In this document: one piece after another, positions 37,306 to 63,091 of the stretch
Layout: the number at the start of each line of letters is the position of its first letter
How positions within the stretch are numbered: the stretch's first letter is position 1
Assembly: GCA_022749295.1 (NCBI GenBank)
Contig: CP062007.1
Location: 1,984,001 to 2,048,000, forward strand
DNA from: Flavobacteriaceae bacterium GSB9
GTDB taxonomy: Bacteria; Bacteroidota; Bacteroidia; Flavobacteriales; Flavobacteriaceae
Reading direction: 5' to 3'
Length of the DNA: 64,000 nt
The notes under the pieces: generated by a model
Told to the model about the DNA's origin: nothing
The model's input: the letters and a program-made list of their open reading frames with translations, nothing else
Databases searched by the model: none
Translations under genes and position numbers: made by a program

Positions 37306-37641
37306 ATGCAAAAAACATACTACGACCCTGCAGATTTGAAAAAATTTGGAAAAATTAGCGAGTGGAACCAAGAACTAGGCGACAAATTTTTTGAATACTA
37401 CACCAAAGTCTTTGAAGACGGCGCATTATCTGCCCGCGAAAAGTCGTTGATCGCTTTAGCCGTAGCTCACACCGAGCAATGCCCTTATTGCATCGATGCT
37501 TACACGCAAGATGGCCTGCAACGTGGCATTACCAAAGAAGAAATGATGGAAGCCCTACATGTTGGCGCAGCCATTAAAAGCGGTGCCGCTTTGGTACATG
37601 GCGTGCAAATGATGAACAAGGTAAATAAATTAGACGGTTAA
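37306..37641 (+). CDS. arsenosugar-cluster carboxymuconolactone decarboxylase-like peroxidase
   Basis: Of 111 residues, AhpD/CMD-like all-alpha protein with a redox CPYC at Cys59-Cys62 (HTEQCPYCIDAY). It belongs to the subgroup found beside ArsS (TIGR04169-type), where some members carry selenocysteine; here both positions are TGC cysteine codons. It probably reduces a peroxide or a thiol/arsenical intermediate, but no reaction is proven for the family. First gene of the cluster, with ArsS 119 bp downstream after a repeat. Confidence 0.85.
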   Translation: MQKTYYDPADLKKFGKISEWNQELGDKFFEYYTKVFEDGALSAREKSLIALAVAHTEQCPYCIDAYTQDGLQRGITKEEMMEALHVGAAIKSGAALVHGVQMMNKVNKLDG

Positions 37642-37643
37642 AA

Positions 37644-37732
37644 TTTGGGCGTTACCACAAGGGCCGGGTTTTCGGCAGTCGCTTCCTCCTGCGTCGGCGA
37701 GCTCCAACAAACGCCTCAATCCCTAACGCAAA
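37644..37732 (+). repeat. GC-rich interspersed repeat with inverted ends
   Basis: An 89-bp GC-rich block starting TTTGGGCGTTACC and ending ATCCCTAACGCAAA, so the ends carry GCGTTA and TAACGC as inverted repeats. The layout (GGGCGTT, then a GGGCCGGG core, then CAATCCCTAACGC) resembles an intergenic repeat I know from many Bacteroidota genomes; this is recalled, not searched. It interrupts the cluster between the peroxidase-like gene and arsS. Confidence 0.6.
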
Positions 37733-37760
37733 CCCCAACTAAAAAAGAACAATTCAATTA

Positions 37761-38816
37761 ATGGTTACAAAATCCTTACATAAGCGGAACAGCGATTTGG
37801 CAAAAAGCAACAAACAATTGGAAATCCTATCCAACGGTATCTTTCAAAACGGGGAATTGCCCACTTTTAAAAATAAAATTGCAGAGAGCAACCAGTTTCC
37901 GCTAAAAGCTAAAAAACTAGAAATCCTACAAATTAATGTGGGCTACATGTGTAATCAAACCTGTGCGCATTGTCATGTTGATGCTGGGCCAGACCGCAAG
38001 GAAATCATGACTCGCGAAACCATGAAGCAGTGTTTGGACGTTATAAAAACCACAGGCGCTCACACTTTAGATTTAACCGGTGGCGCACCAGAAATGAACC
38101 CTAATTTTCGATGGTTTGTAGAAGAAGCTTCAAAAGTGGGCATAAAAGATTTTATTGTACGCTCCAACCTTACCATTATCAGGGCCAATAAAAAATATTA
38201 CGATTTACCTGAATTTTTCAAAAAACATAATGTGCATGTGGTGAGTTCGATGCCCCACTGGACGCGAGGAAAAACAGACAAACAACGTGGCGATGGCGTG
38301 TTTAATGCATCCATTGAAGCATTAAAAATGCTGAACGACGCAGGTTACGGTATGCCCGAAAACCCGTTGCGTTTAGATTTGGTTTATAACCCATCCGGAG
38401 CATTTTTGCCCGGAAATCAATCTTCAATGGAAAAAGAGTTTAAAAAAGCTTTAAAAGAAGATTTCGATATTCATTTCCACAATTTATTCGCCATAACCAA
38501 TTTGCCAATTTCAAGATTTTTGGATTATTTGATAGCCTCTGAAAATTACGAAGATTATATGTACACATTGGTCGAGGCCTACAACCCTACTGCCGTTTCA
38601 AACGTAATGTGTACCAACACACTTTCTGTGAGTTGGAATGGGTATTTGTACGATTGCGATTTTAACCAAATGCTTGAATTGCCCGTTAACAGTAAGGCTA
38701 AACATATTTCAGAATATAACGAAAACCTTTTGGAAGGACGCGACATTGTTATCTCGCAGCACTGCTACGGTTGTACCGCTGGTGCCGGAAGTAGCTGTCA
38801 AGGTAGTGTAGCATAA
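37761..38816 (+). CDS. arsS: arsenosugar biosynthesis radical SAM protein ArsS
   Basis: Radical SAM enzyme of 351 residues. Cys64, Cys68 and Cys71 (CNQTCAHC) bind the [4Fe-4S] cluster, and LDLTGGAPEMNPNF follows as the SAM-binding GGE-like region. The C-terminal DUF3641 part is Cys-rich (VMCTNTLS, YDCDFNQM, HCYGCTAGAGSSC). ArsS proteins transfer the 5'-deoxyadenosyl group to dimethylarsenic, giving the nucleoside precursor of arsenosugars. The family includes selenoproteins, but this copy has cysteines only. It is followed after 3 bp by the rhodanese gene. Confidence 0.93.
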   Translation: MVTKSLHKRNSDLAKSNKQLEILSNGIFQNGELPTFKNKIAESNQFPLKAKKLEILQINVGYMCNQTCAHCHVDAGPDRKEIMTRETMKQCLDVIKTTGAHTLDLTGGAPEMNPNFRWFVEEASKVGIKDFIVRSNLTIIRANKKYYDLPEFFKKHNVHVVSSMPHWTRGKTDKQRGDGVFNASIEALKMLNDAGYGMPENPLRLDLVYNPSGAFLPGNQSSMEKEFKKALKEDFDIHFHNLFAITNLPISRFLDYLIASENYEDYMYTLVEAYNPTAVSNVMCTNTLSVSWNGYLYDCDFNQMLELPVNSKAKHISEYNENLLEGRDIVISQHCYGCTAGAGSSCQGSVA

Positions 38817-38819
38817 GCC

Positions 38820-39314
38820 ATGAAACAGATTATCACATACCTTATTTTAATAGTATCCTCCTCGTGTTTTTCACAAAAGACACTTGAAAAACTATTAAAA
38901 AAACACAACACCGATAGTATTCCATATATAAGCGTAAGCACACTAGACACCATACTAAACCAGGTTATTTTATTAGACGCCAGAGAAACGAACGAGTTTA
39001 AAACCAGTCATTTAAAAAACGCCATCCATATAGGCTATGATGCTTTTGATTTTAAAACATTAAAGGAAAACGTACCTAATAAGCATTCGGAAGTAGTAGT
39101 ATATTGCTCACTTGGCATACGCTCAGAAGCTATTGCATTGAAATTAAAAAAGGCGGGGTATACCAATGTTAAAAATATATATGGCGGTATTTTTGAATGG
39201 AAAAACAACAACCTCCCCGTTTACAATTTAAATGAAAAACAAACCGATAGCGTTCATGTGTATTCCAAGGCATGGCAAAAATGGTTAAAAAAAGGCATAA
39301 AAGTTTATGAATAA
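38820..39314 (+). CDS. exported rhodanese-like protein
   Basis: Of 164 residues with a signal peptide (MKQIITYLILIVSSSCFSQ), so it is predicted periplasmic or, if Cys16 is lipidated, membrane-attached. A single rhodanese domain carries the active-site loop CSLGIRS with Cys96 and the ends ILLDARETNEF and YGGIFEWKNNNLPVY. It could pass sulfur or bind thiol-reactive arsenic; the role in arsenosugar metabolism is inferred from context. It overlaps the next gene by 8 bp. Confidence 0.85.
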   Translation: MKQIITYLILIVSSSCFSQKTLEKLLKKHNTDSIPYISVSTLDTILNQVILLDARETNEFKTSHLKNAIHIGYDAFDFKTLKENVPNKHSEVVVYCSLGIRSEAIALKLKKAGYTNVKNIYGGIFEWKNNNLPVYNLNEKQTDSVHVYSKAWQKWLKKGIKVYE

Positions 39315-39936
39315 AACACTGGTTATTGTTTTTGTAAAAAACCCTAAACTAGGGAAAGTAAAGACCCGTTTGGCAAAAAGTATTGGAAATGAGGCTGCTT
39401 TAGCCGTGTATTCTAAATTGCTAAAAGTCACCGAAAATGCGGTAAAAAAACTCGATACCGATGTCCTTATTTATTTTTCAGAACATATCGAAGAAGAGGC
39501 ATGGCATAATTTCAACAAAAACATACAGCATGGAAAAGATTTAGGCGAACGCATGCGGAATGCATTCCAGCAAGGTTTTGAAGACGGTTACGAGCGGATT
39601 GCTTTAATCGGTTCTGATTTACCCGATATTTCCGAGAATCATATTAAACAGGCATTACATGTTTTAACGCAGAACGAAGTCGTTTTTGGACCTGCCAAAG
39701 ATGGGGGTTACTACCTTATTGGACTCAGCAAAATGCATACTTCAATCTTTCAAAACAAACCTTGGAGCCAGCCCAATCTGTTATCGGAAACCCTAAAAGA
39801 ACTTCACAAAAACAATACAAGTTTTATTACCTTAGAAACCTTAAACGATATTGATACCTATGAAGATTTAATAGCTTCAAAGTTGTATCAAGACAATTTT
39901 AAATTACAAGAGAAAACCAAGCAGTTACATGATTAA
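39307..39936 (+). CDS. TIGR04282-type arsenosugar biosynthesis glycosyltransferase (DUF2064)
   Basis: Of 209 residues, nucleotidyltransferase/GT-A-like fold with VIVFVKNPKLGKVKTRLAKSIG at the start, IALIGSDLPDISENH and FGPAKDGGYYLIGLS. This is the TIGR04282 group that is linked to ArsM and ArsS genes. It presumably activates or transfers the sugar or aglycone part; the reaction is unproven. It overlaps its neighbours on both sides by 8 bp, showing tight translational coupling. Confidence 0.88.
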   Translation: MNKTLVIVFVKNPKLGKVKTRLAKSIGNEAALAVYSKLLKVTENAVKKLDTDVLIYFSEHIEEEAWHNFNKNIQHGKDLGERMRNAFQQGFEDGYERIALIGSDLPDISENHIKQALHVLTQNEVVFGPAKDGGYYLIGLSKMHTSIFQNKPWSQPNLLSETLKELHKNNTSFITLETLNDIDTYEDLIASKLYQDNFKLQEKTKQLHD

Positions 39937-40741
39937 ATTTATTGAAGAGACCGTTGAATACCTTAAAGGAAAAGGTTTTGAAAACCCAGAAATAGGAATC
40001 ATACTAGGCACCGGGTTGGGGCAACTTATAAATAATGTAGAAATTATTGCTGAAGCCAGCTACAACCATATTCCTAACTTCCCAACGGCAACCGTAGAGT
40101 TTCACCAAGGAAAACTTATTTATGGCAAAATCGCAGGAAAAACAGCGGTAGTCATGCAAGGCCGCTTTCATATTTATGAAGGTTATTCACCTCAAGATGT
40201 CACTTACCCCGTACGCATTATGGAAAAACTGGGCATCCATACCTTATTGGTTTCCAATGCTGCAGGTGCCATAAACCTTAATTTTAAAAAGGGCGAGCTG
40301 ATGCTTATTGAAGACCACATTAATCTTCAAGGTAGTTCACCATTGGCTTTTAAAGGTGTTGAACTTTTAGGTGAACGCTTTACCGATATGAGTGCGCCTT
40401 ACGATTCAGAAATCAACACAACACTTAAGCAAATAGCCAAAAACAACGACATTAAACTTCACGAAGGCGTTTACGCCAGTGTTGTTGGCCCACAACTGGA
40501 AACCCGTGCCGAATACCGCATGTTAAAACTTATTGGTGCTGATGCCGTGGGCATGAGTACCGTACCCGAAATAATTGTAGCCAACCATTTAAATTTAAAA
40601 GCAGTAGCGGTGTCGGTTTTAACTGATGAATGTGACCCAGACAACCTAGCGCCAGTAGATATTAAAGATATCATTGCCAGCGCCGAAAAAGCAGAGCCCA
40701 ACATGATAACATTATTCAAAGCATTAATAGAAACATTTTAA
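39929..40741 (+). CDS. purine-nucleoside phosphorylase
   Basis: Of 270 residues, trimeric-type PNP cleaving purine nucleosides with phosphate. The motifs GIILGTGLGQLI, GRFHIYEGYSPQDVTYPVRIM, VSNAAGAINLNF, TRAEYRMLKLIGADAVGMSTVPE and the late VSVLTDECDP are intact. In this cluster the natural substrate may be a dimethylarsinoyl-adenosine, with adenine being released so that the sugar can be decorated. That is inference from the gene order; ordinary purine salvage is the alternative. Confidence 0.92.
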   Translation: MIKFIEETVEYLKGKGFENPEIGIILGTGLGQLINNVEIIAEASYNHIPNFPTATVEFHQGKLIYGKIAGKTAVVMQGRFHIYEGYSPQDVTYPVRIMEKLGIHTLLVSNAAGAINLNFKKGELMLIEDHINLQGSSPLAFKGVELLGERFTDMSAPYDSEINTTLKQIAKNNDIKLHEGVYASVVGPQLETRAEYRMLKLIGADAVGMSTVPEIIVANHLNLKAVAVSVLTDECDPDNLAPVDIKDIIASAEKAEPNMITLFKALIETF

Positions 40742-40830
40742 TAATTGACAGTCAGAAAACGGAATACTGCAGGCCGCCAACTGAACACTATTTACTGAGA
40801 TTTGTTCACCGAACATTAAATACTGAAAAA

Positions 40831-41799
40831 ATGAGCTACCTAGAAACCACTCACGACATATATAAAGAAGCAGCGCTAACACCCGATGTTGGTCTTTGCT
40901 GCACCACAAACCCCATTTGGGAATTGCCCGGGTTAAAAATACCCAAAATCATGCAGGAAATGAATTATGGCTGTGGATCAACGGTGCATGCCCGCGATTT
41001 ATCAAACAACCCAAAAATGCTTTACGTAGGTGTTGGAGGCGGCATGGAACTTTTACAGTTTGCTTATTTCAACAGAACAAAAGGCGGCGTTGTTGGTATT
41101 GATGTGGTTGATGAAATGCTGGAAGCATCACGCAATAATTTTATTGAGGCCGAAAAGCAAAACCCGTGGTTTAAAAGTGAGTTTGTCGATTTAAAAAAAG
41201 GGGATGCGCTCCATTTACCTGTGGATGATAACAGTATTGATGTGGCCGCCCAGAACTGCTTATTTAACATTTTTAAGGCCGAAGATTTAAAAAGGGCTAT
41301 TGCCGAAATGTACCGCGTACTGAAACCCCATGGCAAATTGGTAATGAGTGACCCCACTTGCGAACAGCCCATGAACGACCAGTTGCGAAACAACGATAGG
41401 TTACGCGCCCTATGCTTAAGTGGAAGCTTACCTATAGCCGATTATGTAAAAATGCTAACCGACGCCGGTTTTGGCACGATTGAAATAAGAGCCAGAAAAC
41501 CATATCGTATTTTAGACCCTAAGCATTACCCTACCAATGAGTTGGTTTATATTGAATCCATTGAAGTAGCTGCCATAAAAGACCCTATACCCGAAGATGG
41601 GCCATGCATTTTCACGGGGAAAACAGCTATTTATTATGGTGAAAACGATTATTTTGATGACAACAAAGGCCACGTTTTACTTAAAAATCAACCCTTGGCC
41701 ATTTGCGATAAAACAGCCAGCGCTCTGGCTTCATTAGGTAGAGATGATATTTTTATAAGTGAATCGACTTTTCATTACGACGGTGGCGGTTGCTGTTAA
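40831..41799 (+). CDS. arsM: arsenosugar biosynthesis arsenite methyltransferase ArsM
   Basis: SAM-dependent methyltransferase of 322 residues with motif I YVGVGGGMELLQ near residues 65-76, followed by VVGIDVVDEMLEASR and VAAQNCLFNIF. Likely arsenic-binding thiols are Cys23-Cys24 (GLCCTTNP), Cys48 (NYGCGS), one in SDPTCEQP, and a C-terminal GGGCC. It is expected to methylate As(III) to mono- and dimethylarsenic, the first steps of arsenosugar synthesis. An 89-bp gap separates it from the phosphorylase gene. Confidence 0.92.
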   Translation: MSYLETTHDIYKEAALTPDVGLCCTTNPIWELPGLKIPKIMQEMNYGCGSTVHARDLSNNPKMLYVGVGGGMELLQFAYFNRTKGGVVGIDVVDEMLEASRNNFIEAEKQNPWFKSEFVDLKKGDALHLPVDDNSIDVAAQNCLFNIFKAEDLKRAIAEMYRVLKPHGKLVMSDPTCEQPMNDQLRNNDRLRALCLSGSLPIADYVKMLTDAGFGTIEIRARKPYRILDPKHYPTNELVYIESIEVAAIKDPIPEDGPCIFTGKTAIYYGENDYFDDNKGHVLLKNQPLAICDKTASALASLGRDDIFISESTFHYDGGGCC

Positions 41800-41813
41800 A
41801 CCATTTTTTTCTG

Positions 41814-42704
41814 ATGGAAAAATATTTAGACATCATAAAAAACTCTTATTTGGGGTATTGGAATTATCTGAATAACGAGATTTTCTTTCCAAATAACTGG
41901 CACAATTATTTTTATGGCTTAATAGCCATTTCACTAATTGTTTGGATTTTAGAAATCGCTTTTCCATGGCGAAAAAACCAATCTATTTTCAGAAAAGATT
42001 TTTGGTTGGACACCTTTTACATGTTCTTCAACTTCTTTCTTCTTAATTTAATTGTGCTTATCGCTTTATCCAACACGGCCGCCGAAATACTCAATGATAT
42101 TTTGGGTGCCGTCGAATTACAACTGGCCGATTTCCAGCTTTTCGATGCAAACGATTTACCCAAATGGCTAGGGCTACTTATTTTTTTTCTGGTATCAGAC
42201 TTTGTACAATGGAACACGCATAGGTTATTGCATAGTTCGCCGTGGCTGTGGAACTTCCATAAAGTACACCATTCGGTTAAAGAAATGGGGTTTGCCGCCC
42301 ATTTGCGCTACCATTGGATGGAACCTGTAGTTTACAAGTCGTTACTTTATATCCCCTTGGCCCTTATTGCTAATTATAGCGCGCAAGACGTGGCTATTGT
42401 TTACTTTTTTAGTATTGCCATTGGCCATTTAAACCACGCTAACTTAGGCTGGGATTACGGCATTTTAAAGTACATTCTCAACAACCCTAAAATGCATATT
42501 TGGCACCATGCTAAAAAACTCCCGGAGCATGTTAGGTTTGGCGTTAATTACGGACTAACATTAAGCTTGTGGGACTACCTTTTTAAAACCAATTACGTAC
42601 CATTCAGTGGACGCGATATTGAATTGGGATTTGAAAGTGATGAGAATTTCCCTGAAGACTTTGTTAACCAAGAGCTTTATCCATTATCTAAAAGAAAATC
42701 ATGA
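41814..42704 (+). CDS. sterol desaturase/fatty acid hydroxylase family membrane protein
   Basis: Membrane di-iron oxygenase of about 296 residues. Several hydrophobic segments surround the histidine clusters HRLLH, NFHKVHHSVKEMG, HLRYHW and IWHHAK that bind the iron pair. ATG 41814 is chosen, 14 bp after the arsM stop; an alternative start at 41790 would overlap arsM. Members hydroxylate or desaturate lipids, so it may act on the fatty part of an arsenolipid. That substrate is inference from context. Confidence 0.85.
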   Translation: MEKYLDIIKNSYLGYWNYLNNEIFFPNNWHNYFYGLIAISLIVWILEIAFPWRKNQSIFRKDFWLDTFYMFFNFFLLNLIVLIALSNTAAEILNDILGAVELQLADFQLFDANDLPKWLGLLIFFLVSDFVQWNTHRLLHSSPWLWNFHKVHHSVKEMGFAAHLRYHWMEPVVYKSLLYIPLALIANYSAQDVAIVYFFSIAIGHLNHANLGWDYGILKYILNNPKMHIWHHAKKLPEHVRFGVNYGLTLSLWDYLFKTNYVPFSGRDIELGFESDENFPEDFVNQELYPLSKRKS

Positions 42705-43402
42705 ACAACACATTGCTTTCTGTTATATTCCTTTTTGTTGTAAACATCAATTACGGCCAGCATGTAAGCCATCATGTTTGGAATGACTTGCTTCATAACT
42801 ATGTCTCCACCTCGGGAAAAGTGAATTACAAGGGCTTAAAAAAACAAGAAAAAGACCTTGGAAAATATATAAAATACTTGACTGAAAACATTCCAAAAAG
42901 CACTTGGCTCAAAAATGAAACATTGGCTTATTGGATTAATGCGTACAATGCGCTTACCGTCGATTTAATCTTGAAACACTACCCAGTAAAAAGTATCAAG
43001 GATATAAAAAACCCGTGGAAACAACGTTTGTGGGAATTGGGCGGAAAAGCATATAGTTTAGATAAAATTGAGCACGATATATTACGAAAAATGGACGAGC
43101 CTCGAATTCATTTCGCTATAGTTTGCGCCTCCTATTCGTGTCCTAAACTCCAAAACGAAGCGTTTACCCCCAAGCAGTTAGACCATCAATTAACTAATGC
43201 TACAAAGGATTTTTTGAGTGACTCGAGCCGAAATGAAATATCAAAAAACAAATTAAAACTTTCAAAAATATTTCAATGGTTTTCCAAAGATTTTGAGAAA
43301 AATGGGAGTTTGATTGATTTTTTAAATCAGTATTCCGATATTGAGATTTCACCTAAAGCAAAAACAAATTTTAAAGATTATAGCTGGGATTTGAATGAAT
43401 AA
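42701..43402 (+). CDS. DUF547 domain protein of the arsenosugar cluster
   Basis: Of 233 residues with a signal peptide (MNNTLLSVIFLFVVNINYG) and a DUF547 body: SGKVNYKGLKKQEKDLGKY, WINAYNALTVDLILKHYPVKSIKDI, IHFAIVCASYSCPKLQNEAF. DUF547 has a thiol-protease-like fold suspicion but no proven reaction. It overlaps the preceding gene by ATGA and the next gene by 8 bp, so it is a fixed part of the unit. Confidence 0.85.
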   Translation: MNNTLLSVIFLFVVNINYGQHVSHHVWNDLLHNYVSTSGKVNYKGLKKQEKDLGKYIKYLTENIPKSTWLKNETLAYWINAYNALTVDLILKHYPVKSIKDIKNPWKQRLWELGGKAYSLDKIEHDILRKMDEPRIHFAIVCASYSCPKLQNEAFTPKQLDHQLTNATKDFLSDSSRNEISKNKLKLSKIFQWFSKDFEKNGSLIDFLNQYSDIEISPKAKTNFKDYSWDLNE

Positions 43403-44087
43403 AATTTCTATTGTAATTCCAATTTTAAACGAAGCTGAATTTATTACAAAATTGCTTCGACACCTCATAGATAATACTAACCCAAGAAATATTTCAGAAA
43501 TTATTGTTGTAGATGGTGGCAGCACCGATGGTTCGCAAAAGTTAGTTTCAAACTTCGGTAATATCATCCTTTTAAATTCTGAGAAAGGCCGCGCCAAACA
43601 AATGAACTTTGGAGTAAAGCAAGTTACAGGAAACGTTCTTTATTTTTTACATGCCGATTCGGTTCCGCCAAAACATTTCGACCAGCTCATTCTCAACGAA
43701 ATACAAAGAGGAAATGAAGCTGGATGCTTTAGAATGCAATTTAACAGCAACCATTGGTGGCTTAAGTTGGCAAGTTGGTTCACCCAATATAACTGGCGTA
43801 CCTGTCGTGGTGGGGATCAAAGCTTGTTTATAACCAAAACACTTTTTGATGCAGTTGGTGGTTTTAACGAAGATTACAAAATCTACGAAGACAATATTTT
43901 AATCAACCAACTTTATGACCGAAATCAATTTGTGGTTATCAACAAAAAACTCCAAACCTCAGCAAGAATGTACCAAAAACACGGTATTTGGAAACTCCAG
44001 TTTCATTATTGGGCCATTTATTTAAAAAAATGGTTGGGTGCAGATGCCAACGCCCTTTTTAGGTATTATAAAAAGCATATTAGCTAA
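43395..44087 (+). CDS. TIGR04283-type arsenosugar biosynthesis glycosyltransferase
   Basis: GT2-fold enzyme of 230 residues: VIPILNEAEFITKLLRHL, IVVDGGSTDGSQ, EKGRAKQMNFGV, LYFLHADSVPP and a catalytic-region TCRGGDQSLF. The TIGR04283 group is tied to ArsM/ArsS clusters and presumably adds or transfers the sugar. Last gene of the cluster. Its TAA stop overlaps, on the opposite strand, the TAG stop of the convergent metallophosphatase. Confidence 0.9.
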   Translation: MNKISIVIPILNEAEFITKLLRHLIDNTNPRNISEIIVVDGGSTDGSQKLVSNFGNIILLNSEKGRAKQMNFGVKQVTGNVLYFLHADSVPPKHFDQLILNEIQRGNEAGCFRMQFNSNHWWLKLASWFTQYNWRTCRGGDQSLFITKTLFDAVGGFNEDYKIYEDNILINQLYDRNQFVVINKKLQTSARMYQKHGIWKLQFHYWAIYLKKWLGADANALFRYYKKHIS

Positions 44088-63044: not shown

Positions 63045-63091
63045 CGCCCTCATTAATAACCGAGGTCGAGAACCTCAAATAATTAATTATT

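What the first reader, a model, noticed from the sequence alone, without database searches (positions are those of the whole stretch)
37306..44087. Nine-gene arsenosugar-type cluster, possibly leading to an arsenolipid
Nine genes in one direction, several overlapping by 4-8 bp, hold ArsM, ArsS, a purine nucleoside phosphorylase, two arsenosugar-type glycosyltransferases, a CxxC peroxidase-like protein and a rhodanese. ArsM and ArsS chemistry is established for the families. The order suggests that the phosphorylase removes adenine from a dimethylarsinoyl-adenosine and that the transferases then decorate the sugar. The membrane hydroxylase and exported DUF547 protein inside the same unit have no assigned step and could act on a lipid or envelope product. 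No arsR, arsenite pump or reductase is in the window.
Basis: partly seen in the sequence, partly recalled or inferred. Interest (0 to 1): 0.75.

Follow-up and report, generated by a model that had tools for sequence, protein, structure and literature searches.

The report
Flavobacterial arsenosugar gene cluster
Nine neighbouring genes in a flavobacterium-type genome very probably turn toxic arsenic into an arsenic-containing sugar; the kind is already known, but the comparison points to how the unsolved middle steps may run.

Summary
In detail: nine same-strand, tightly packed genes at 37306-44087. Seven pass NCBIfam cut-offs, five of them already labelled arsenosugar biosynthesis (ArsS, ArsM, peroxidase-like, TIGR04282, TIGR04283). 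The kind is widespread: ArsS is in 148 of 199 genomes of the host's family.

The cluster joins two modules: peroxidase-ArsS, and rhodanese-TIGR04282-phosphorylase-[ArsM-hydroxylase]-DUF547-TIGR04283. In those 199 genomes ArsM (117 carriers) and the cluster-type hydroxylase (60) occur only with ArsS; DUF547 or sterol-desaturase genes also flank ArsS in Proteobacteria. Against exclusivity, the second module survives without ArsS or ArsM in 6 of 20 ArsS-negative genomes examined.

The 'purine nucleoside phosphorylase' has methylthioadenosine-phosphorylase-like (MTAP-like) residues at two substrate-pocket positions, and ArsS regions of two Burkholderiaceae carry an MTAP instead. This favours adenine removal from dimethylarsinoyl-adenosine. 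'Glycosyltransferase' TIGR04282 is closest in fold to guanylyltransferases, suggesting arsenoribose 1-phosphate, then NDP-arsenoribose, then transfer by TIGR04283. These steps are inferred. An arsenolipid is possible but unshown. A separate ars operon lies elsewhere in the genome.

The parts
37306..37641 (+). CxxC AhpD/CMD-type protein, 'arsenosugar biosynthesis-associated peroxidase-like'
   Evidence: TIGR04169 187.2 bits, cut-off 120; PF02627; within 10.5 kb of ArsS on the same strand in 120 of 120 named or same-family loci and 37 of 40 loci of other Bacteroidota families
37647..37728 (.). GC-rich repeated element in the peroxidase-ArsS gap (extent judged by eye)
   Evidence: 17-mer at its start found 5 times in the genome with at most 1 mismatch, 3 of them exact, reversed control 0; its first 10 bases lie in the same gap in L038, L041, L042, L046, L150 and L170
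37761..38816 (+). ArsS, radical SAM enzyme joining dimethylarsenite to 5'-deoxyadenosine
   Evidence: TIGR04167 441.5 bits, cut-off 300; CX3CX2C (CNQTCAHC) read in the sequence
38820..39314 (+). rhodanese-domain protein with a signal-peptide-like start (by eye)
   Evidence: NF045521 'rhoda_near_glyco' 199 bits, cut-off 145
39307..39936 (+). TIGR04282/DUF2064 protein, annotated glycosyltransferase; here proposed nucleotidyltransferase
   Evidence: TIGR04282 211.5/134 bits; model pLDDT 94.4; after its own family (3cgx, Z 26.7) the best folds are guanylyltransferase-type, Z 16-19
39929..40741 (+). trimeric-type purine nucleoside phosphorylase with MTAP-like pocket residues (Asp233, Ile245)
   Evidence: NF006054 335/218 bits; residues compared
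40831..41799 (+). ArsM, arsenosugar-type arsenite methyltransferase
   Evidence: NF038099 575.5/400 bits; three Cys aligned with those of solved arsenic methyltransferases (their role is recalled)
41817..42704 (+). membrane fatty-acid-hydroxylase/sterol-desaturase superfamily protein
   Evidence: PF04116 92.8/31 bits; clade at 69% identity or more in 60 of 199 genomes, all 60 ArsS-positive, 58 of 60 within 25 kb of ArsS
42701..43402 (+). DUF547 protein with a signal-peptide-like start (by eye)
   Evidence: PF04784 105.3/27 bits; confident model without a significant PDB match
43395..44087 (+). TIGR04283 family 2 glycosyltransferase
   Evidence: TIGR04283 232.2/182 bits; PF00535

Best explanation
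An arsenosugar biosynthetic operon of the flavobacterial type. ArsM methylates arsenite to dimethylarsenite (shown for the families, not here); ArsS joins it to 5'-deoxyadenosine (shown for the family). The phosphorylase then removes adenine by phosphorolysis, giving 5-deoxy-5-dimethylarsinoyl-alpha-ribose 1-phosphate (inferred); TIGR04282 activates this sugar phosphate to an NDP-arsenoribose (inferred); TIGR04283, of the inverting family GT2 (recalled), transfers the sugar to an acceptor such as glycerol or a glycerol-headed lipid, which would give the beta-riboside of natural arsenosugars (inferred). Peroxidase-like protein and rhodanese probably handle arsenic/thiol redox (inferred). Hydroxylase and DUF547 protein belong to the unit and may modify or move a membrane-bound product (weak inference). 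The genome's separate arsR-like/arsC-like/acr3 operon would do plain arsenate detoxification.
For: Family calls over cut-off. Conserved order, 26 of 26 complete sets. ArsM in 117 of 199 genomes, all 117 with ArsS. PNP-I in 148 of 148 ArsS-positive genomes against 27 of 51 ArsS-negative. PNP residue 245 is Ile/Val in 109 of 109 flavobacterial-type copies tallied from ArsS-positive genomes, His in 8 of 8 classic copies, Val in the B. glumae MTAP; residue 233 is Asp in every copy tallied and in that MTAP. Human PNP H257 binds O5', and MTAP's hydrophobic pocket suits 5'-substituted 5'-deoxynucleosides (PMC5147791 passages); Glu201Gln/Asn243Asp human PNP cleaves adenosine-type prodrugs (PMC2799393 passages); nucleoside phosphorylases yield alpha-ribose 1-phosphate (PMC7226091 abstract). 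MTAP beside TIGR04283-TIGR04282 in ArsS regions of Burkholderia glumae (annotated; over the TIGR01694 cut-off) and Cupriavidus (tblastn only). TIGR04282 fold nearest to guanylyltransferases. DUF547, TIGR04283, TIGR04282, a methyltransferase and a phosphate transporter follow ArsS in Acinetobacter portensis; a sterol desaturase is beside ArsS and TIGR04282 in Ca. Thiodictyon.
Against: Six of 20 ArsS-negative genomes examined keep rhodanese-TIGR04282-phosphorylase-TIGR04283 (four also DUF547) with no ArsS and no NF038099 ArsM: the set has a use without arsenic or outlived ArsS. TIGR04283 occurs without ArsS in 66 of 200 carriers. The MTAP-like pocket is shared by the same PNP clade in ArsS-negative genomes (13 of 13), so arsenic did not shape it. 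In 40 of 40 ArsS loci of other Bacteroidota families no match to the window's phosphorylase or to the B. glumae MTAP was found within about 10 kb. 31 of 148 ArsS-positive genomes lack NF038099 ArsM. The PNP keeps Glu191 where the MTAP has Ser, and fails the MTAP cut-offs. The own genome also has a DeoD-type PNP, which could do the step. No product has been measured.
Confidence: 0.5

Rival explanations
1. Arsenosugar formation is real (ArsM, ArsS, TIGR04282, TIGR04283), but the phosphorylase is simply the family's housekeeping purine/methylthioadenosine phosphorylase, co-transcribed by history and with no arsenical substrate.
For: One copy in nearly all carriers (two in G033 and G178), present in 27 of 51 ArsS-negative genomes; same pocket residues there; no match near ArsS in 40 of 40 loci of other Bacteroidota families.
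Against: Within 10.5 kb of ArsS on the same strand in 61 of 80 named and 32 of 40 unnamed same-family loci; where it lies apart from ArsS it is still next to ArsM in 15 of 20 loci; a different phosphorylase (MTAP) sits in ArsS regions of Burkholderiaceae.
Confidence: 0.28
2. Rhodanese-TIGR04282-phosphorylase-DUF547-TIGR04283 is an arsenic-independent envelope or glycolipid (ribosylation) pathway into which ArsM, ArsS and peroxidase genes have been inserted for co-regulation, for example under phosphate stress.
For: Module kept without ArsS/ArsM in 6 of 20 ArsS-negative genomes examined; TIGR04283 in 66 of 239 ArsS-negative genomes of the phylum sample; phosphate-transporter-type genes on the same strand within the fetched stretch in 10 of 120 named or same-family loci and in 2 of 6 plasmid regions.
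Against: TIGR04283 is still far commoner with ArsS (134 of 156 against 66 of 239); DUF547, TIGR04282 and TIGR04283 are beside or near ArsS in Proteobacteria as well.
Confidence: 0.17
3. The phosphorylase serves as an arsenate reductase through arsenolysis, feeding arsenite to ArsM.
For: No PF03960 ArsC-family or ACR3 match in the window; PNP was once proposed as an arsenate reductase (cited in PMC2292810, passages).
Against: The same review says this was refuted; the genome has an arsenate reductase over the TIGR00014 cut-off and an arsC-like gene before acr3.
Confidence: 0.02

Closest known systems
ArsM-ArsS arsenosugar pathway of Synechocystis (Xue et al. 2019; ArsS mechanism Cheng et al. 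2021; both known here only through passages and references in PMC8552651 and PMC12159101)
   Same: ArsM and ArsS families and the first two reactions
   Different: Here both are in one unit with phosphorylase, TIGR04282, TIGR04283, hydroxylase, DUF547 and rhodanese; in the one cyanobacterial plasmid region looked at (Pseudanabaena) only ArsM and ArsS of these were found
NCBI arsenosugar annotation set (TIGR04167, TIGR04169, TIGR04282, TIGR04283, NF038099)
   Same: Five of the nine genes pass these cut-offs
   Different: None of these five labels covers a phosphorylase, hydroxylase or DUF547 step; TIGR04282 is called a glycosyltransferase, whereas its fold is nearest to guanylyltransferases
ArsS regions of Burkholderia glumae bglu_2p and Cupriavidus sp. 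KK10 p1
   Same: ArsS with TIGR04282, TIGR04283, DUF547 and a nucleoside phosphorylase
   Different: The phosphorylase is an MTAP, not PNP-I; no hydroxylase homologue was annotated (B. glumae) or hit
Arsinothricin cluster arsQML (PMC8552651 and PMC12159101, passages)
   Same: ArsM plus a radical SAM enzyme making a C-As bond
   Different: The radical SAM enzyme transfers a 3-amino-3-carboxypropyl group; the product is an amino acid, not a sugar

Membership tests
Arsenosugar biosynthesis cluster | ArsS over curated cut-off | tested here: met
   TIGR04167 441.5 bits, cut-off 300
Arsenosugar biosynthesis cluster | Arsenosugar-type ArsM over curated cut-off | tested here: met
   NF038099 575.5 bits, cut-off 400
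Arsenosugar biosynthesis cluster | Arsenosugar produced from arsenite | not testable with these tools
   needs culture and HPLC-ICP-MS
Arsenolipid (arsenosugar phospholipid) pathway | Enzyme joining arsenoribose to a lipid | not testable with these tools
   TIGR04283, hydroxylase and DUF547 are candidates only
PNP (PRK08202 / NF006054) | Curated model cut-off | tested here: met
   335 bits, cut-off 218
MTAP (TIGR01694) | Curated model cut-off | tested here: not met
   91.2 bits, cut-off 274.85
MTAP (works like) | Asp for the 6-amino base and a hydrophobic residue in place of the 5'-OH-binding His | tested here: met
   Asp233 and Ile245 align with Asp and Val of the B. glumae MTAP; against it, the MTAP's Ser is Glu191 here; one MTAP only, with an alignment gap nearby
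Glycosyltransferase (TIGR04282 label) | Glycosyltransferase rather than nucleotidyltransferase | tested here: inconclusive
   Guanylyltransferase-type chains Z 16.1-19.4, mannosylglycerate synthase Z 13.5; fold shows no function
Ornithine lipid hydroxylase OlsE (NF052566) | Curated model cut-off | tested here: not met
   82.5 bits, cut-off 475
Classical ars resistance operon | ACR3 pump and ArsC reductase in the unit | tested here: not met
   Genome matches: ACR3 at 1318337; PF03960 at 518082 and 2144415; the window is 1984001-2048000. arsR was not searched for by profile

The most novel reading that the evidence does not exclude
A complete bacterial arsenosugar route by way of arsenoribose 1-phosphate and an NDP-arsenoribose: a nucleoside phosphorylase of methylthioadenosine type (recruited separately as PNP-I in Flavobacteriaceae and as MTAP in Burkholderiaceae), a CofC-like nucleotidyltransferase hidden under the label TIGR04282 glycosyltransferase, and a GT2 that puts the sugar on a membrane glycerolipid later handled by the hydroxylase and DUF547 protein. 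Flavobacteria, many of them alga-associated, would then be makers of arsenolipids.
Probability: 0.25. Interest if true: 0.8.

Novelty: new variant of a known kind. Interest (0 to 1): 0.5.

Why it matters
In the passages I could read, only the first two steps of arsenosugar making (ArsM, ArsS) are assigned; how adenine gives way to the aglycone is open. The comparison names a testable enzyme for each missing step and shows that hydroxylase and DUF547 genes accompany ArsS in more than one phylum. It also warns that TIGR04282 and TIGR04283 alone do not prove arsenosugar making, since they occur without ArsS.

Tried and rejected
PNP as arsenate reductase: dropped, since the idea is reported refuted and the genome has a reductase. 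Asp233 as a mark of arsenic specialisation: dropped, since all 20 ArsS-negative copies examined have it too. A folded RNA element in the 119-nt peroxidase-ArsS gap: z-score -0.23, no Rfam match there. DUF547 function by fold: Foldseek gave no hit at E <= 0.001 and the second look nothing above Z 5.0; that excludes no family. Sigma-70-like promoter matches: 32 against 22.8 (sd 4.9) in shuffles, only weakly above chance, and terminator-like sites 5 against 9.1 (sd 3.0); not used, as the consensus does not suit Bacteroidota (recalled). Papers: in the rows listed by searches I saw none joining DUF547, a sterol desaturase or a nucleoside phosphorylase to arsenosugar genes; several listings were cut (for example 15 of 314, 15 of 236, 12 of 60,543), and the library holds open-licence PMC papers only. 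Passages were seen in PMC12159101, PMC8552651, PMC8787705 (references only), PMC2799393, PMC2292810, PMC7345539, PMC5147791, PMC5738077 and PMC7226091; other papers as listings. Xue 2019 (PMC6467767) is not held.
Full report
WHAT IS THERE. Nine + strand genes run from 37306 to 44087: CMD/AhpD peroxidase-like protein (TIGR04169), ArsS (TIGR04167), rhodanese (NF045521), TIGR04282, purine nucleoside phosphorylase (NF006054), ArsM (NF038099), a fatty-acid-hydroxylase superfamily protein (PF04116), a DUF547 protein (PF04784) and TIGR04283. Overlaps of 4-8 nt and short gaps suggest one operon with a possible break at the 119-nt peroxidase-ArsS gap, which holds a repeated GC-rich element. An acyl-CoA-dehydrogenase-like gene precedes the unit and a convergent metallophosphatase-like gene follows it (by eye).

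HOW COMMON. The window is part of a 3.63-Mb single-contig genome. ArsS over cut-off is in 148 of 199 genomes of the same family and 156 of 395 of the phylum sample. By the titles of related loci the family is Flavobacteriaceae (80 loci kept of 589 matches, one of the 80 titled Chlorobiota). In 120 ArsS loci (those 80 and 40 unnamed same-family ones, partly the same genomes), all nine genes have tblastn matches within 10.5 kb on one strand in 26, always in the window's order. Counts there, named then unnamed: peroxidase 80 of 80 and 40 of 40, TIGR04282 (paralogues included) 75 and 36, phosphorylase 61 and 32, ArsM 51 and 30, rhodanese 54 and 26, DUF547 41 and 28, TIGR04283 35 and 27, hydroxylase 23 and 17. 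Many loci are cut by flank or contig ends, so these are lower bounds.

TWO MODULES. In 20 PNP loci chosen because the PNP of an ArsS-positive genome is not beside ArsS (one of them, L292, a second, classic copy), ArsM is next to the phosphorylase in 15 of 20 and TIGR04282 in 19 of 20. So the unit divides into peroxidase-ArsS and rhodanese-TIGR04282-phosphorylase-[ArsM]-DUF547-TIGR04283; the window has them fused. Of 51 ArsS-negative genomes, 27 have PNP-I; I fetched 20 of these 27 loci, and 6 keep rhodanese-TIGR04282-phosphorylase-TIGR04283 in the same order (4 of the 6 also DUF547) without ArsS and without an NF038099 ArsM at E <= 1e-100 in the genome. This is the strongest result against reading every gene as arsenic-specific.

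CO-OCCURRENCE. In the same 199 genomes: ArsM in 117, all ArsS-positive; 31 ArsS-positive genomes lack it. Hydroxylase: a clade at 69% identity or more in 60 genomes, all 60 ArsS-positive (60 of 148 against 0 of 51, Fisher p 5.5e-10, not corrected for phylogeny), 58 of 60 within 25 kb of ArsS, one on another contig and one 173 kb away. Weaker matches, 47-63% identity where printed, are in 89 genomes, 79 ArsS-positive and 10 ArsS-negative; of the 78 ArsS-positive ones with printed places only 4 (G033, G057, G107, G143) lie within 25 kb of ArsS. DUF547 at E <= 1e-55, counted by hand: 129 of 148 ArsS-positive, 8 of 51 ArsS-negative; 8 weaker matches were left out. PNP-I: 148 of 148 and 27 of 51 (four genomes without a match were not printed and were identified by elimination). 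In the phylum sample TIGR04283 is in 134 of 156 ArsS-positive and 66 of 239 ArsS-negative genomes.

OTHER FAMILIES AND PHYLA. In 40 ArsS loci of other Bacteroidota families, the commonest same-strand neighbours among the nine are the peroxidase (37), TIGR04282 (18) and TIGR04283 (14); ArsM and DUF547 are there in 7 each (DUF547 in 2 more on the other strand); the phosphorylase in none. Hydroxylase-family matches lie within 10 kb in 5 of 40, three on the same strand. A tblastn of plasmid records found ArsS in 51 records, 46 of them Burkholderia; I looked at six regions. Acinetobacter portensis: ArsS, TVP38/FAD-oxidoreductase, DUF547, TIGR04283, TIGR04282, methyltransferase, phosphate transporter. 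Ca. Thiodictyon: GT2, sterol desaturase, ArsS, TIGR04282; its desaturase is 31% identical to the window's over 143 residues. Burkholderia glumae: TIGR04282-TIGR04283-MTAP on one strand, ArsS 6.9 kb away on the other, then DUF547. Cupriavidus: phosphate-transporter-like, ArsM-like, ArsS, TIGR04283, TIGR04282, MTAP and DUF547 matches in one run (unannotated record, tblastn only). Hymenobacter: DUF547, TIGR04283, two dehydrogenases, ArsS. Pseudanabaena: ArsM, TVP38, ArsS.

THE PHOSPHORYLASE. In an alignment of 165 sequences (the tally covers 130 copies, leaving out other fetched loci, many of them repeats), residue 233 is Asp in every copy tallied and in the B. glumae MTAP. Residue 245 is Ile or Val in 90 of 90 linked and 19 of 19 unlinked flavobacterial-type copies from ArsS-positive genomes and in 13 of 13 from ArsS-negative genomes, but His in 8 of 8 classic copies; the MTAP has Val. 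I equate 233 with human Asn243 and 245 with human His257; that equation rests on my recall of the human sequence, not on an alignment made here. Human H257 contacts O5', and the MTAP pocket is hydrophobic and suits 5'-substituted 5'-deoxynucleosides (PMC5147791, passages); E201Q/N243D human PNP cleaves adenosine-type substrates (PMC2799393, passages). The window enzyme keeps Glu191, where the MTAP has Ser. So it is a PNP by family with two MTAP-like determinants, a good fit for a 5'-dimethylarsinoyl adenosine. The trait is that of the clade and does not depend on ArsS. DeoD-type PNP has a match in 101 of 199 genomes, the host among them, so the host has a second PNP.

TIGR04282. The model (pLDDT 94.4) matches its own family's structure 3cgx (Z 26.7), then 3-phospho-D-glycerate guanylyltransferase 7p97 (19.4), the probable nucleotidyltransferase 2i5e (18.6) and Rv2983 (16.8; a guanylyltransferase by recall), above mannosylglycerate synthase (13.5). 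A K-[ST]-R-L segment is kept in most of 39 homologues (K19 in 37, R21 in 33). Together with the phosphorylase this suggests sugar-1-phosphate activation. A shared fold does not prove the reaction; the reading is inferred.

DUF547 AND HYDROXYLASE. DUF547 folds confidently (pLDDT 93.8) without a significant PDB match; invariant or nearly invariant residues in 38 homologues include N80, Y82, N83, E124, H137, C142, C147, P148, Y227 and W229. The hydroxylase carries HX3H and HX2HH histidine boxes (read in the sequence). Both are tied to ArsS by co-occurrence, but no step can be assigned.

PHOSPHATE LINK. Phosphate-transporter-type genes (PiT, or Pst-like ABC genes by order and Pfam domains) lie on the same strand within the fetched stretch in 10 of 120 named or same-family loci and 1 of 40 others, and in 2 of 6 plasmid regions. 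In a green alga, phosphate supply shifts arsenic between arsenosugars and arsenosugar phospholipids (PMC7345539, passages). Regulation by phosphate is a plausible setting here, untested.

CONCLUSION. A known kind of cluster in a flavobacterial variant.

Noticed in passing
window 37647-37728; also genome 2074579, 2831756, 495328, 1941375: GC-rich repeated element; its first 17 bases occur 5 times in the genome with at most 1 mismatch. One copy sits in the peroxidase-ArsS gap, and its first ten bases are in the same gap of L038, L041, L042, L046, L150 and L170.
   Followed up: partly
L054:11897-18816; SusC-type neighbours on the same strand in 18 of 160 ArsS loci: A SusC-SusD-sodium symporter-metallophosphatase module, often with a second TIGR04282 gene, lies near peroxidase-ArsS in some relatives but not in the window; it looks like an uptake system tied to ArsS.
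   Followed up: partly
L147:2329-5740, L071, L035, L087: Pst-like phosphate ABC genes or a PiT phosphate transporter embedded in the arsenosugar cluster of some relatives.
   Followed up: partly
L304:5760-8381 (genome about 1316759-1319380): The host's separate ars operon: arsR-like (by eye), a 155-aa protein, arsC-like (weak TIGR02691 match) and acr3.
   Followed up: partly
L069:16470-20435: Four DUF547-like genes in a row in the Aquimarina algiphila cluster.
   Followed up: no
window 63052-63087: S16-Flavobacteria ribosomal protein leader (RF03138), over its gathering score.
   Followed up: no
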